Source of the DNA: Spiroplasma endosymbiont of Asaphidion curtum
GTDB taxonomy: Bacteria; Bacillota_I; Bacilli_A; Mycoplasmatales; Nriv7
Length of the DNA stretch: 64,000 bases
Reading direction: 5' to 3'
Assembly: GCF_964031085.1 (NCBI RefSeq)
Contig: NZ_OZ035001.1
Span: forward strand, 930,001 to 994,000
Below are positions 5,498-55,395 of the stretch, piece by piece. Under the pieces are notes generated by a model, which saw only the letters and a list, made by a program, of their open reading frames with translations, had not been told where the DNA came from and searched no databases. Each line of letters starts with the position of its first letter. Positions within the stretch are counted from its first letter, which is position 1. Position numbers and translations under genes: made by a program.

Positions 5498-5969
5498 TTA
5501 AAACATTGTCCTGTAAAAATTTAATTACTTGTGTTGCAAGAAGACCCCTACCACTTAAATTGATTACTCGTGTAGTATCATCAATTATCTTCCATTGTAA
5601 GATTAAAGCATTATTAAAATCAATAATTTGTAAAACATTTTCATATCATTCAATAATATTTAAATTATTATTAAATGCCTCTTCATACATCTCTAAATCT
5701 TCATCATTATTTAAACGATAAGCATCCATATGAATTAATTTAAATGATTGTTTTGGAATTACATACTCATTCATAATAACAAATGTTGGCGAATTAACTA
5801 TCTCTGAAATTTGCAAAGCATTTGCTAAATATCTTGTAAATGTTGTTTTACCAGTTCCCAATGCTCCTTGTAACAAAATAAAACCCGGACGACCAACATA
5901 CTTAGCAATAACAGCTCCCAAAGCTTCTGTTTGTGCCTCATTATGAGTTATAAACTGCAAATTTACCAC
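5484..5969 (-). CDS. tsaE: tRNA threonylcarbamoyladenosine biosynthesis ATPase TsaE
   Basis: 161 aa. Walker A GALGTGKTTFTR near residue 35, then the TsaE motif NSPTFVIMNEY and HMDAYRL. TsaE hydrolyses ATP to reset the TsaBD complex that makes t6A. Two UGA Trp codons occur in the last third. A GTG start at 5969 directly follows the nrnA stop (TAAGTG), with an AGGAG sequence about 14 nt upstream. Co-transcribed with tsaB further down. Length matches the family. Confidence 0.93.
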
Positions 5970-6911
5970 TTATTTTGGTTCTCCTCTACTAATCACTTCA
6001 TCTAAATCACTAATAATATTTTTAACATCATTAAAATCATTAATCCGCGCTCCCGCAGCAAAATTATGACCACCACCATTATATTTGCTAGCAACAGTAT
6101 TAACAAAAAATTTATTTGATCGTAGTTCAACACGAATATTATTATTTTTATCTTCACAAAAAAATGCTCAAATTGGCTTATCTTTAACATTAGCTAATAA
6201 ATTGACTTTACTAGCAGCAGTATTATGATTAATGCCTAACTTCTCTAATGTTTTGTTATCAAATACTAAATATAAAACTCCCTTTGTTGAAGTTTGATAA
6301 TTTTCATAAACAAAACTCATAAATTTTAAATCTTCTTCACTAACTTGATACATTTCACGATATAATTGATTTAAATCAAACCCTTTTATTAATAAAAAAC
6401 TCGCAAGACTAAATGTTCTCGCATTAGTTTTTGAATAAAGAAAACGACCACTATCAGTTACCATTCCATGATAAATAATTCTTGCTGCTAACGGCGTAAC
6501 TTTTAAATTACATTCCTTAACTCATAAAGCAATCATTTCACTAGCTGAACCAAATTGTTCATCAACTCAAATAATATCACCATAAGGTTCAATATTTGGA
6601 TGATGGTCAATCTTAATAATAGTTTTTGCTAATTTATATCGGTCATCATCAACTCGTGCTAAATTACCACAATCACCAATAATAACTAAACTATCTTTAA
6701 AATCATCATCACAAACTGTATCCATAGTCCCAATAAAGTTTAAATAATCACTATTTGTTCCCGCTGCTAGAACAATCTTATCAGGTCAATTAGATTTAAT
6801 TATTTCTTTTAAACCTAACTGCACACCATAAGCATCACCATCAGGAATAATATGACGAAGCAATATAATTCGGTTATGTTCCTTAATTAACTGCAAAATC
6901 TTATCTCTCAT
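5970..6911 (-). CDS. nrnA: DHH/DHHA1 phosphoesterase, NrnA-like (nanoRNase / pAp phosphatase)
   Basis: 313 aa. DHH family motifs: RHIIPDGDAYG near residue 20, GDCGNLARVDD, the defining KIDHHPN near residue 107, and VTDSGRFLYS. The C-terminal DHHA1 motif GGGHNFAAGAR is present. The enzyme degrades 2-5 nt RNAs and/or dephosphorylates pAp. First gene of the operon that continues into tsaE, the ECF S component, coaX and tsaB; start ATG at 6911 follows a GGAAGG-type SD. Members of this family in mollicutes are often called MgpA. Exact substrate cannot be told from sequence. Confidence 0.9.
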
Positions 6912-48117: not shown

Positions 48118-49199
48118 GCTGAATTATACTTGTAAGTGCAAGTAAATAAAATTGCAAAAAATCTCATATAAAAATTTCATGATGCTAAGTTTATTTTAGA
48201 AAAAACAAAGCAAGGAGTTTTTATATGGGTTACAAACATCTTGGCATATATGAAAGAATTTATATTGAGAATCAATTGAAGTTTAAAGTAAAAATTAGTG
48301 AAATAGCTAAAAATCTTAATCGAAGTATTAGTACTATTATTCGAGAAGTCAATAGAAATAAAGATAGTAATCATTATTTTTCATTAATTGCACAAAATAA
48401 AGCAGAAAACAGAAAACAATCACATGTTTATTTTCATAAGTTTAAAAATAGAGAATTAGTAAAATATGTACAACAAAAATTACTATTAGGTTGATCGCCT
48501 GAACAAATTTATGGCAGAATTAAAAATTTTCATAAAGAATGAATTATTAGTTTTAAAACAATTTACAATTGAATTTATTCTGGATTACTTGAAAAAGTTA
48601 CTAATAAAAATTTAAGAAGAAAAGATAAGAAACGAAAATCTCAAGAAAATCGCGGTAAATTTAATGGTAAATCAATTAAAGAACGAAATATTAATGTTAA
48701 TAATCGTATAACTGTTGGTCATTGAGAAGGTGATACTGTAGTATCATCACGAGGTAAAAGTAAATCATGTTTAATAACTTTAGTTGAAAGAACATCAAGA
48801 TTTACTTTAGCAATGTTAGTTGAAAATAGAACTACTAAAGTTGTTAACGAAAACATTAGCCATTATTTATCAATTCTTCCAAATAATCTTGTTAAGACTA
48901 TAACATTTGATAGGGGTAAAGAATTTTCTAATTGACAACAACTTGAAAAAAATTTAAATGTGAAAATTTATTTTGCTAATGCGTATTCGCCTTGACAAAG
49001 AGGTACTAATGAAAATACTAATGGTTTAATTAGAGAAAAATTTCCTAAAAAATTTAATTTTTCAAATACTACTAAAAATGCAGTTCATAAATTTATATTG
49101 TCTTTAAACCAAAGACCAAGAAAAATACTAAATTATCTTTCACCAATCGAATATTTGGTTAGAAAAATAATTTAGTTGCACTTAACTTTACAATTTGGC
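48118..49199 (+). mobile_element. IS30-type element (copy 6), complete
   Basis: 1082 bp with intact ends, set inside ISa debris. Flanks AAAT and AAAC come from different parts of ISa, so ISa sequence between them has been lost. Confidence 0.94.
48225..49175 (+). CDS. IS30 family transposase
   Basis: 316 aa, open and near-identical to the others; RRKDKKRK replaces RRKGKKRK in the linker before the catalytic domain. Confidence 0.93.
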
Positions 49200-49802: not shown

Positions 49803-50507
49803 ATTGATTTATTTATTAGTTTAGTGTGGCATACATTAACGATATTATTTTTTGGGATTAATCCAGTACAGTGATGAAAATTTGCTTGGAAACCGGTTAT
49901 TCAAGGTTTTGCAACGAAATCCTTTCAAGCAACAATTCCTATATCAATAGATGCCTTAAAAGATGATATGAAAATTAAAGAAGAAGCCGTAAACTTAGTA
50001 TTACCGTTATCCTCAACGATGGGATTAACTGGATGTGCTGGTGTTTGTTCAAGCTGGTGTCGTTTTAATGTTTGTTTATAACGGCGCTAGTAGTATTAAT
50101 AGTCAATATTCAGTATGGATTTGATTTTTAATGGGATTAATTGTTACCGTTATTACTTCATTAGGAATTGCTGGTGTTCCTGGTACAGCACCATTAGTTA
50201 CTGCTGGTGTTTTATCGGGGTTGGGATTTCCTGCTATGATACTATATATACTTATTTGGGAGCATTAGATGGTATTCTTGATATGGGAAGGACGGTGGTT
50301 AATGTTGCTGGTGGTTTACAAGCAACAACAATTGTGGCTTGTATGCAAAATAAAATTGCTGAACCGCAACTAATTCTTTTTAATTATCGTAAAAAAATCG
50401 TCAAAAAAATAAAAATAAAATTCACTAAACGATATTTTTTTCTCAAAACACACCTAACGGTGTGTTTTTATTTACCACTTATATTAATTATAGGCGGTTT
50501 TAATTAA
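49803..50507 (+). pseudogene. Dicarboxylate/amino acid:cation symporter (DAACS), truncated and frameshifted
   Basis: C-terminal half of a GltP/DctA-type carrier: FATKSFQATIPISIDALK (the HP1 serine-rich region equivalent), NLVLPLSSTMGLTGCAG, LGIAGVPGTAPLVTAGVLSGLG and LGALDGILDMGRTVVNVAGGLQAT, which matches the conserved last helix (DRxLDMxRTxxNVxGD). Frameshifts occur near 50047 and 50237 and probably near 50400. N-terminus lost to ISa. Would import a dicarboxylate or acidic/neutral amino acid if intact. Confidence 0.85.
50445..50469 (+). terminator. Terminator after the symporter pseudogene
   Basis: AAAACACACC-TAAC-GGTGTGTTTTT, a 10-bp stem with U-run. The symporter frame running through it supports a late frameshift in that gene. 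Confidence 0.8.
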
Positions 50508-51348: not shown

Positions 51349-52430
51349 GCCAAATTGTAAAGTTAAGTGCAACTAAATTATTTTTCTAACCAAATATTCG
51401 ATTGGTGAAAGATAATTTAGTATTTTTCTTGGTCTTTGGTTTAAAGACAATATAAATTTATGAACTGCATTTTTAGTAGTATTTGAAAAATTAAATTTTT
51501 TAGGAAATTTTTCTCTAATTAAACCATTAGTATTTTCATTAGTACCTCTTTGTCAAGGCGAATACGCATTAGCAAAATAAATTTTCACATTTAAATTTTT
51601 TTCAAGTTGTTGTCAATTAGAAAATTCTTTACCCCTATCAAATGTTATAGTCTTAACAAGATTATTTGGAAGAATTGATAAATAATGGCTAATGTTTTCG
51701 TTAACAACTTTAGTAGTTCTATTTTCAACTAACATTGCTAAAGTAAATCTTGATGTTCTTTCAACTAAAGTTATTAAACATGATTTACTTTTACCTCGTG
51801 ATGATACTACAGTATCACCTTCTCAATGACCAACAGTTATACGATTATTAACATTAATATTTCGTTCTTTAATTGATTTACCATTAAATTTACCGCGATT
51901 TTCTTGAGATTTTCGTTTCTTACCTTTTCTTCTTAAATTTTTATTAGTAACTTTTTCAAGTAATCCAGAATAAATTCAATTGTAAATTGTTTTAAAACTA
52001 ATAATTCATTCTTTATGAAAATTTTTAATTCTGCCATAAATTTGTTCAGGCGATCAACCTAATAGTAATTTTTGTTGTACATATTTTACTAATTCTCTAT
52101 TTTTAAACTTATGAAAATAAACATGTGATTGTTTTCTGTTTTCTGCTTTATTTTGTGCAATTAATGAAAAATAATGATTACTATCTTTATTTCTATTGAC
52201 TTCTCGAATAATAGTACTAATACTTCGATTAAGATTTTTAGCTATTTCACTAATTTTTACTTTAAACTTCAATTGATTCTCAATATAAATTCTTTCATAT
52301 ATGCCAAGATGTTTGTAACCCATATAAAAACTCCTTGCTTTGTTTTTTCTAAAATAAACTTAGCATCATGAAATTTTTATATGAGATTTTTTGCAATTTT
52401 ATTTACTTGCACTTACAAGTATAATTCAGC
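51349..52430 (-). mobile_element. IS30-type element (copy 7) with ATTG target duplication
   Basis: 1082 bp, flanked by ATTG at 51345-51348 and 52431-52434. Removing it restores the ISb sequence TTTTATTGTTAAATAAATC, as in the 7487 and 59310 copies. Confidence 0.97.
51373..52323 (-). CDS. IS30 family transposase
   Basis: 316 aa, intact, DD(33)E. Same sequence type as copy 1. Confidence 0.95.
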
Positions 52431-52794
52431 ATTGTTAAATAAATCAATAATTATTTGTGATTTTAATGAATGTTGCCTTTTCTTACCAGAAAATAATAAT
52501 TTTAGTTTTTTTAATTCTTTCAATTGGAATTTCTGAAGCATCAATTGCTAATAAATTATTATTATTATTAGTACCCTTATTTTCCAATAATATCTTTTTA
52601 ATAATACGATATGTACTATATTCTTTTCAGTATTCTAAAGTCATAAGTAATTTTTGCTCTATTGATAATTTATTTGGTCTACCACCAATTTGTTTTTGTT
52701 TAGCTTCAGCTTCTTTTAAAATTTCTACCATTTTCATGAAAGTGAATTTTATAGTTTGGTAGGTGCAAAATGTTATAGTTATGTACCAAGTCTA

Positions 52795-52902
52795 ATGTAT
52801 TTTAAGGACAATCTTGAATTATTAAAATTTATTTATGAAAAAACTGGTATATGAAACACCACCGAATTTGAAAAAATAAAATTAAAGCATAAATTATCTT
52901 AG
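52795..52902 (+). pseudogene. Short unidentified ORF remnant
   Basis: 35 codons from ATG 52795 (MYFKDNLELLKFIYEKTGIW, then NTTEFEKIKLKHKLS) with one UGA Trp, starting directly at the ISb boundary. No SD, so probably the 3' end of a longer gene. Not recognised. Confidence 0.35.
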
Positions 52903-53000
52903 ACTGAAAAATATAAACACAAAAAGCGAGCAATAATTTATCATTGATATAAGTTATTTTTCATCTAACTATTCTGCATAAGGAGAAAGGAGAGAATAAA

Positions 53001-53093
53001 ATGAACAAGTGTAAGGACTGCAAATGTTCTTGTTCTGAGAGACATAACTGCAAAGATTGTAAGAAAGACAGTACTAGTAAACATAGTTGCTAA
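53001..53093 (+). CDS. Small cysteine-rich peptide, metallothionein-like
   Basis: 30 aa with 7 Cys: a CxxCxCxC cluster at residues 4-11, CxxC at 17-20 and a final Cys at 30; also 2 His and many Lys. A very strong SD (AAGGAGAAAGGAG) lies about 10 nt before the ATG, and a strong terminator follows 25 bp after the stop, so it looks like a real, separately expressed unit. The spacing fits Zn(II) or Cu(I) binding. No membership in a named family is claimed. No Trp/UGA. Confidence 0.65.
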   Translation: MNKCKDCKCSCSERHNCKDCKKDSTSKHSC

Positions 53094-53116: not shown

Positions 53117-53160
53117 AAAAATAGGTCTCTAACAAAGGAATTTTGTTAGAGACCTATTTT
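53117..53160. terminator. Strong bidirectional terminator
   Basis: 19-bp stem AAAATAGGTCTCTAACAAA / TTTGTTAGAGACCTATTTT with a short loop. Serves the Cys-rich peptide gene on one strand and rsh on the other. Confidence 0.9.
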
Positions 53161-53169
53161 GCTATATAT

Positions 53170-55395
53170 CTAGTTTTCCATTACAATGACATCATACACA
53201 TGGGGTATTTGTTGTAATGATGACAGTAATTGTTGAAGAAGAACTTTGTTAGCAATTTTAATAACAAGATTAATACTGTATTTATTATCCGAACTTGTTT
53301 CAATATGAATTTGTTGAATCGAAGCATTTAAATTAGCAAGAATATGTGTAATATTAGCCATTAAACCATCACGGTCATAACAAATTACTTTAATATTACT
53401 ATAATATTGATCGCGCTTAACGATATTTTCATTCCACCACACTTCCAGAAGTCGCCCTTGTCGTTCTTCTGGAAGAATATTGTGGCATTTAACTCGATGC
53501 ACGCGAATCCCACCAAGTTTACTAACATATCCCGTAATTGGTTCTAACGGCACTGGCATACAACAATGAGCTAAAGTTGCTTTAATATTATCAGCACCTT
53601 TAACAATAATGTCGTCTTTTAAGTTAATTTTTTCAACTTTTTTTTCTTGAAGATGATTTAAATAAGTATTAGGACTAGTTTCATTACTTGCTAATAAAAG
53701 ATTAATCGCATCATCAAGTTGATATTTCTTATTGGCAACATCTAAATAAAAATCTTCTAAAGTATGATATTTTAATTGCTTTAAGCGATGCATTAGTTCT
53801 TTTTGGGAAACTAACTTTCATTTTAATTTCCGCTGCGTTAAAGCATCATCAATCGCTTTTTTAATATTTTTAATTTTTTTAAGATTTTTAGATTCATTAT
53901 CCTTATGAGTTTCATCAAATTCTTGCTCTTGTTTTTTTAAAAATCTTTTAATTTTATGCAATGCATAACTAGTTTTAGCAATAACTAGTCAGTCACGGGA
54001 TGGTCGCATATTTTTACTAGTTTTAATTTCCACAACATCACCAGATTTTAAAACAGTACTAATAGAAACATAGTTACCATTAATTTTACCACCAGTAGTT
54101 TTCTCGCCAATATCAGTATGAACTTTATATGCAAAATCTAAAATTGTTGACCCAAAAGGCAAAGTAATAACTTTACCATTAGGAGTTAAAACATAAATTA
54201 AAGAAGTAAAAATATCACTCTTAACTGCTAACTCCATATTTGATTTTTCATTACTTTCTAATTCTTCATTATTAATATTTTCTAAATCTAAAATCCGATT
54301 AAAAATATCTAATCGCTCATCAATATCAGCTTGGCGTTTTTTAGTATTATAGATTTCGCCCTCTTTATACTTTCAATGCGACGCCGCCCCATAAGTTGCC
54401 TTTTCATCCATATCAACAGTTCGAATTTGAATCTCATAAATTATTGAATCTTGAATAACTGTTGTATGTAATGACTGATATAAATTATATTTAGGCGTTG
54501 CAATATAGTCCTTAAATCTTCCTGGTAAAGGCGGAAATTGTTGATGTAAATAACCTAAAATCGTATAACATTCATCAATCGTATTAGTAATAATTCTTAT
54601 CGCTAATAAATCATGAATATCTTCAAATTTACGCCCAAAATAATACATCTTACGATAAATTGAATAAATACTTTTGCTACGACCAGAAATTGTTGCTTTA
54701 ATATTCTTACTACTTAATAATGACTTAATATTGTTCATCATTACTGCCATTAATGATTCTAAATGTTCTTTTTCCAAATCAACATTGCGAGAAATTCTTT
54801 TATACTCAACAGGATTTAAAATTGCAAAAGACAAGTCTTCTAAAAGACTTTTTACTTGTCGCATCCCTAACCGGTGCGCAATTGAAGAATAAACTTCTAA
54901 AGTTTCTTTCGCAATAACTTTTTGTTTTTCTAGTTCCAAATATTCAATTGTTTGGATATTATGCAAACGATCTGCTAACTTAATAACAATAACACGAATA
55001 TCATGGGCCATACTTAAATATAACTTTCGCAAATAATTAGATTTAATTTCACTACGATTCATTTTAGCAAAATAAGATACTTTCGTGACCGCTTCAACTA
55101 AAGTTGATATCTCAATATCAAACTCTTTATTCAAGTCTTCAAAAGTTGTCGGTGTGTCTTCTAACACATCATGTAATAAACCAGAAATTAATGTCGCTAA
55201 ATCCATATGCCATGTTGCCAAATAATAAGTTGTTCATAAAGGATGATTAATATAAGGTTCACCACTTTTTCTTAACTGCTGATCATGTTTATTATAAGCA
55301 TAGGCATATGCTCGTTTTATTTCCTCAATATCTTTTTCGTTACTAATATAAGTTTTAACTTTATCTAAAACTTGTTTAAATGTTATCGATTTCAT
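53170..55395 (-). CDS. rsh: Bifunctional (p)ppGpp synthetase/hydrolase (RSH, RelA/SpoT)
   Basis: 741 aa, complete long RSH. HD hydrolase domain (YINHPL, HDVLEDT near residue 75, LADRLHNIQT), synthetase domain (GRSKSIYSIYRKM, FEDIHDLLAIRII, YNLYQSLHTTV), TGS domain (VLTPNGKVITLPFGSTILDFAYKVH), zinc-finger/CC region (ATLAHCCMPVP) and C-terminal ACT domain. Both catalytic halves look intact. Makes and removes the alarmone in response to starvation. apt lies just upstream on the same strand, a common mollicute order. Confidence 0.97.

What the first reader, a model, noticed from the sequence alone, without database searches (positions are those of the whole stretch)
53001..53093. 30-aa cysteine-rich peptide with strong expression signals
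Seven Cys in 30 residues in a CxxCxCxC...CxxC...C arrangement, a near-ideal SD and a strong terminator right after the stop. This is too short for most gene callers. It could be a minimal metal-binding peptide (metallothionein-like) in an organism with a reduced genome.
Basis: partly seen in the sequence, partly recalled or inferred. Interest (0 to 1): 0.6.

Follow-up and report, generated by a model that had tools for sequence, protein, structure and literature searches.

The report
Spiroplasma mini metallothionein-like peptide family
The 30-residue cysteine-rich peptide is a real gene, and it belongs to a previously unnamed family of tiny free-standing proteins found across much of Spiroplasma that keep the same six cysteines and one histidine, most likely to bind metal ions.

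Summary
A 30-aa ORF (53001-53093 +) has seven Cys and a very strong ribosome-binding site matching the genome's own 16S tail. One correction: the 'terminator right after the stop' starts about 25 nt downstream, is bidirectional, and fits the convergent relA/spoT gene better.

The peptide is not an orphan. Iterated profile searches recovered 27 intact and 3 decaying members in four Spiroplasma lineages, including a 51-aa, 8-Cys paralogue 40 kb away in the same genome. No confident homologue appeared outside these lineages in class- and phylum-wide samples, and there is no Pfam, NCBIfam, PHROGs, PADLOC or PDB match. Cys codons changed only synonymously within a clade; pN/pS is 0.04-0.17 in the window's genus. 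Motif: (Cx3)CxxCxCxC-x(5-14)-CxxC(xxC)-..-H. Neighbours differ between clades, and most copies have their own strong SD and terminator, so there is no fixed partner.

Best explanation: a metallothionein-like metal (Zn/Cu(I)) thiolate-binding protein, the window copy being a shortened derivative. Homology, coding and selection are shown; metal binding is inferred (about 0.55). A Zn-structured mini-protein is the main rival. The family is new; the kind of function is probably known.

The parts
53001..53093 (+). 30-aa cysteine-rich mini-protein gene (7 Cys, His15, His28), short member of a Spiroplasma CxxCxCxC-CxxC-H family
   Evidence: translation; tblastn in relatives; profile searches; pN/pS; family alignments
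52984..52992 (+). extended Shine-Dalgarno AGAAAGGAG, complementary to the 16S tail CTCCTTTCT
   Evidence: sequence; 16S tail found once in own genome; duplex -13.5 kcal/mol and random-ATG control
53118..53160 (.). 19-bp bidirectional hairpin between the peptide and convergent relA/spoT; consensus terminator on the - strand, weaker T-tail on the + strand
53170..55395 (-). convergent relA/spoT (HD, RelA_SpoT, TGS, ACT domains); a neighbour, not a partner: other clades have different neighbours
   Evidence: Pfam; synteny comparison

Best explanation
The ORF encodes a real mini-protein under purifying selection, probably cytosolic, the short member of a Spiroplasma family of free-standing one-gene units. 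Shown: homology across four lineages, the conserved Cys/His set, strong translation signals, and a paralogue in the same genome. Inferred: the chain is largely unstructured without metal and folds around metal, the CxxCxCxC block and the CxxC(xxC)...H block wrapping thiolate-bound soft metal ions (about two Zn2+-type sites or a small Cu(I) cluster). It would work as a metallothionein-like buffer that stores or detoxifies Zn, Cu(I) or Cd in a wall-less cell living in arthropod hosts. The window copy would have shrunk from an 8-Cys ancestor by losing the first Cys and replacing the eighth with one at the C-terminus.
For: Frame and all Cys kept in the three other intact same-genus copies; pN/pS 0.04-0.17. 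Profile members in g13, g39 and g15; six Cys and one His invariant in the 19-sequence alignment. In 25 intact members five Cys columns are invariant, and the Cys17 column and the His are kept in 24 of 25 (the exception is a second copy in G217); within nine g13 members, pairwise Cys-codon changes sum to 48 synonymous and 0 nonsynonymous. 51-aa 8-Cys paralogue in the own genome. 15-24% Cys with CxC and CxxC motifs and few aromatics, typical of metallothioneins. No neighbours conserved between clades, mostly own SD and terminator, fitting a stand-alone metal buffer. The AlphaFold model is mostly coil (pLDDT 62.7), compatible with metal-dependent folding but weak evidence.
Against: No direct evidence of metal binding, metal-induced expression, or a linked metal regulator or transporter. 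No sequence match to any metallothionein family. The strict conservation of spacing and of the C-terminal His is more than a pure metal sponge needs and would also suit a structured Zn mini-protein. The gene is dispensable: absent, lost or decaying in several Spiroplasma genomes.
Confidence: 0.55

Rival explanations
1. A structural zinc mini-protein: the Cys/His set forms one or two fixed Zn sites that shape a tiny fold which acts by binding RNA, the ribosome or a protein, rather than by buffering metal.
For: Spacing of CxxCxCxC and CxxC and the terminal His are strictly kept over very divergent members while the loop varies from 5 to 14 residues; one very weak zf-CXXC hit, E=0.6.
Against: No significant zinc-finger family or PDB match; almost no hydrophobic residues to build a core; no partner gene conserved between clades; the Cys set itself changes (7 vs 8 Cys, last Cys shifted) in the window's lineage.
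Confidence: 0.22
2. A thiol redox or sulfur/Fe-S carrier peptide: the Cys pairs cycle between thiol, disulfide or persulfide, or hold an Fe-S cluster.
For: Many CxxC pairs; a gene that looks like a MarR-type regulator follows the paralogue and one that looks HxlR-like follows the G218 copy, both families that often sense redox (own recognition).
Against: Neighbours are not conserved between clades; no suf/isc or thioredoxin linkage seen; CxCxC arrays are more typical of metal clusters.
Confidence: 0.12
3. A secreted or modified peptide (RiPP precursor, bacteriocin or toxin-like).
For: Small and Cys-rich; Spiroplasma are known to make toxins.
Against: No signal sequence or leader region by inspection; no modification, protease or export genes conserved next to it; hydrophilic throughout.
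Confidence: 0.05
4. A cysteine-sensing leader peptide that controls a downstream operon by attenuation.
For: Cys-rich, strong SD, hairpin after the stop.
Against: In the window the next gene is convergent (relA/spoT), so there is no operon to control; downstream genes differ between clades; amino-acid conservation extends to the terminal His and to Cys spacing.
Confidence: 0.03
5. A chance ORF.
For: Very short.
Against: Conserved frame, low pN/pS, family-wide Cys/His conservation, profile E-values down to 1e-14.
Confidence: 0.01

Closest known systems
Bacterial metallothioneins: SmtA type (Synechococcus) and mycobacterial MymT
   Same: Small and Cys-rich; MymT was likewise found as a non-annotated small ORF (PMC7558416).
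   Different: 30-51 aa here, different Cys spacing; no profile hit in Pfam, NCBIfam or PDB for the peptide or its relatives; no sign of the zinc-finger-like part of SmtA.
Fungal copper metallothioneins such as Neurospora crassa Cu-MT (from memory: about 25 aa, 7 Cys, 6 Cu(I))
   Same: Comparable size and Cys number; nearly no aromatic residues.
   Different: Cys spacing differs (CxxCxCxC...CxxC), a conserved His is present, no detectable homology; resemblance only.
Small zinc mini-proteins such as ribosomal protein L36 (from memory: Cys3His site)
   Same: Around 40 residues with Cys/His ligands.
   Different: L36 has one Zn site; here there are 6-8 Cys and almost no hydrophobic residues; no family match.

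Membership tests
Spiroplasma CxxCxCxC-CxxC-H mini-protein family (defined here) | CxxCxCxC followed by a 5-14 residue loop and CxxC, then a C-terminal His | tested here: met
   Cys 4, 7, 9, 11, 17, 20 and His28 of the window peptide align with the conserved columns
Spiroplasma CxxCxCxC-CxxC-H mini-protein family (defined here) | Two further Cys of the common form (one before the block, one after CxxC); common but not defining | tested here: not met
   First Cys absent; position of the last Cys is Asp23, with a new Cys30 at the C-terminus; the 51-aa paralogue in the same genome has both
Known bacterial metallothionein families (SmtA / Pfam prokaryotic metallothionein) | Sequence match to a family profile or solved member | tested here: not met
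   No Pfam, NCBIfam or PDB match for the peptide or relatives
Metallothionein in the broad functional sense | Small, Cys-rich, CxC/CxxC motifs, few aromatics | tested here: met
   30-47 aa, 15-24% Cys, 0-3 aromatics in 25 intact members; the paralogue is 51 aa with 8 Cys
Metallothionein in the broad functional sense | Binds several metal ions through thiolate clusters; metal-responsive expression | not testable with these tools
   Needs ICP-MS, mass spectrometry and expression data

The most novel reading that the evidence does not exclude
A Spiroplasma-restricted class of the smallest known bacterial metallothioneins, possibly two paralogues with different metal preference per cell, evolved in wall-less reduced genomes and helping these symbionts survive host metal withholding or metal overload.
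Probability: 0.35. Interest if true: 0.7.

Novelty: new variant of a known kind. Interest (0 to 1): 0.55.

Why it matters
Bacterial metallothioneins are called rare (PMC7558416), and two searches of the held literature turned up no report of one in Spiroplasma or other mollicutes. A family missed because its members fall below gene-calling length would add a metal-handling component to Spiroplasma, whose iron economy in the insect host is already an active topic (PMC10117857, PMC12453411). At 30 aa the window copy would be among the smallest natural metal-cluster proteins. It also gives a clean, testable case of a small protein shrinking in a reduced genome, with the long form still present beside it.

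Tried and rejected
Cys-attenuator leader: rejected because the next gene is convergent and neighbours differ between clades. Chance ORF: rejected by conservation and pN/pS. RNA element: no Rfam match at gathering threshold in the region; the sub-threshold hits lie mostly on the terminator hairpin. Phage or plasmid origin: no family member in viral contigs, PHROGs or plasmids. DNA-pattern hits in other bacteria were unrelated reading frames, except the Nebria riversi Spiroplasma, a true member. The related-loci scan of genome contigs found nothing under its own tblastn cut-off. Weak profile hits in other mollicutes (L056, L057, L059-L064, L077, L078, L080-L082, L112, L113) were discarded as frames inside other genes or lacking the motif. 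AlphaFold with a two-row alignment gave a low-confidence coil, so no fold search was run.

Full report
Observation. The 30-codon ORF at 53001-53093 (+) reads MNKCKDCKCSCSERHNCKDCKKDSTSKHSC (it holds no TGA, so codes 4 and 11 agree). It has the highest Cys fraction of all 625 short ORFs in the window; 2 of 100 simulated windows reach that value. The leader AGAAAGGAG is complementary to the genome's own 16S tail CTCCTTTCT, with a duplex energy of -13.5 kcal/mol that 0.07% of random ATGs in these genomes reach. The hairpin downstream (53118-53160) is real but bidirectional, and fits the terminator consensus on the relA/spoT strand.

Conservation near. The window lies in a 1.31 Mb genome whose genus group (g1) includes the Spiroplasma of Nebria riversi (contig length 1,414,935, equal to G002), a lineage called 'Unplaced' in PMC10232968. 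The frame is intact in three other g1 genomes (90-97% identity) and 5'-truncated in G004, where sequence that looks like the end of an IS3/IS150-type element (own reading) replaces the start. pN/pS among the g1 copies is 0.04-0.17 where defined; one pair has 4 nonsynonymous and 0 synonymous differences, so the numbers are small.

Family. Profile searches with a profile rebuilt in steps (A1 to A4) found members in f6/g13 (10 genomes with the main form; a variant in G222; a second copy in G217; G221 decayed), f6/g39 (G192, G194, G196, G198, G199, G202; G195 decayed by a stop codon) and f5/g15 (G026, G031, G035). None was found in f5/g5, nor outside these lineages at E<=0.001 in 395 genomes of the class and 392 of the phylum, both samples drawn evenly and including the order. 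In the 19-sequence alignment six Cys and one His are invariant. Over 25 intact members these Cys columns hold in 24-25 and the His in 24. Among nine g13 members, pairwise differences at Cys codons sum to 48 synonymous and 0 nonsynonymous (pairs are not independent). The common form is C-x3-C-x2-C-x-C-x-C-loop-C-x2-C-x2-C-...-H; the window peptide lacks the first Cys, has Asp at the eighth position, and ends in a new Cys.

Paralogue. The same genome has a 51-aa, 8-Cys member at G000:C1 889426-889581 (L141:5427-5582), MTDNCKLRCVACQCTCRAPGAEHQSNNINNCSDCPTCKPEDNHERKPPRKF, also in G002, with a strong SD (-12.9 kcal/mol) and its own terminator. It resembles the long g39 forms (G194, G202), which suggests that the long and short types are old (inference).

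Gene organisation. Neighbours are relA/spoT in g1; nadD-like and mtnN-like genes upstream in most g13, often with a HAD hydrolase downstream; trmFO-like, lepA-like, uvrA-like/pfkB-like, smpB-like and other genes elsewhere (names without a Pfam search are my recognition). Of 25 intact members, 17 have a terminator-like hairpin (score 8 or more) within 90 nt of the stop, against 32 of 600 random positions (the 17 counted by me from the table). So the unit is a stand-alone gene without a fixed partner, which argues against an attenuator, a RiPP cluster or a two-gene toxin-antitoxin pair.

Mechanism. Composition and motifs fit thiolate metal binding; the strong SDs fit high expression. The most likely function is a metallothionein-like buffer. 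Which metal is unknown. No match exists in Pfam, NCBIfam, PHROGs, PADLOC or PDB (two Pfam hits at E 0.18 and 0.6 are not significant). The structure prediction is low confidence. The functional claim therefore rests on composition and analogy and is given 0.55; the claim of a real conserved family is given about 0.97.

Noticed in passing
48225-49175 (+) and 51373-52323 (-): Two nearly identical 316-aa IS30-like transposase genes (HTH_38 + rve) in opposite orientation; further copies lie beside the paralogue (L141). The region upstream of the peptide is IS-rich.
   Followed up: partly
49824-50268 (+): Frame-broken pieces of a sodium:dicarboxylate symporter (SDF, PF00375) between the two IS copies: a pseudogene.
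   Followed up: partly
L141:5427-5582 and 5716-6174: 51-aa 8-Cys paralogue of the peptide 40 kb upstream of the window, followed by a gene that looks like a MarR-type regulator.
   Followed up: partly
L134 (G195) against L135 (G198): The G195 copy has a stop codon where G198 has Lys, and a degraded SD: a recent-looking pseudogene beside an intact close relative.
   Followed up: no
52756-52902 (+): Fragment ORF (MVGAKCYSYVPSL...) upstream of the peptide; a related fragment lies downstream of the truncated copy in G004, so it is a mobile or repeated piece of unknown kind.
   Followed up: no
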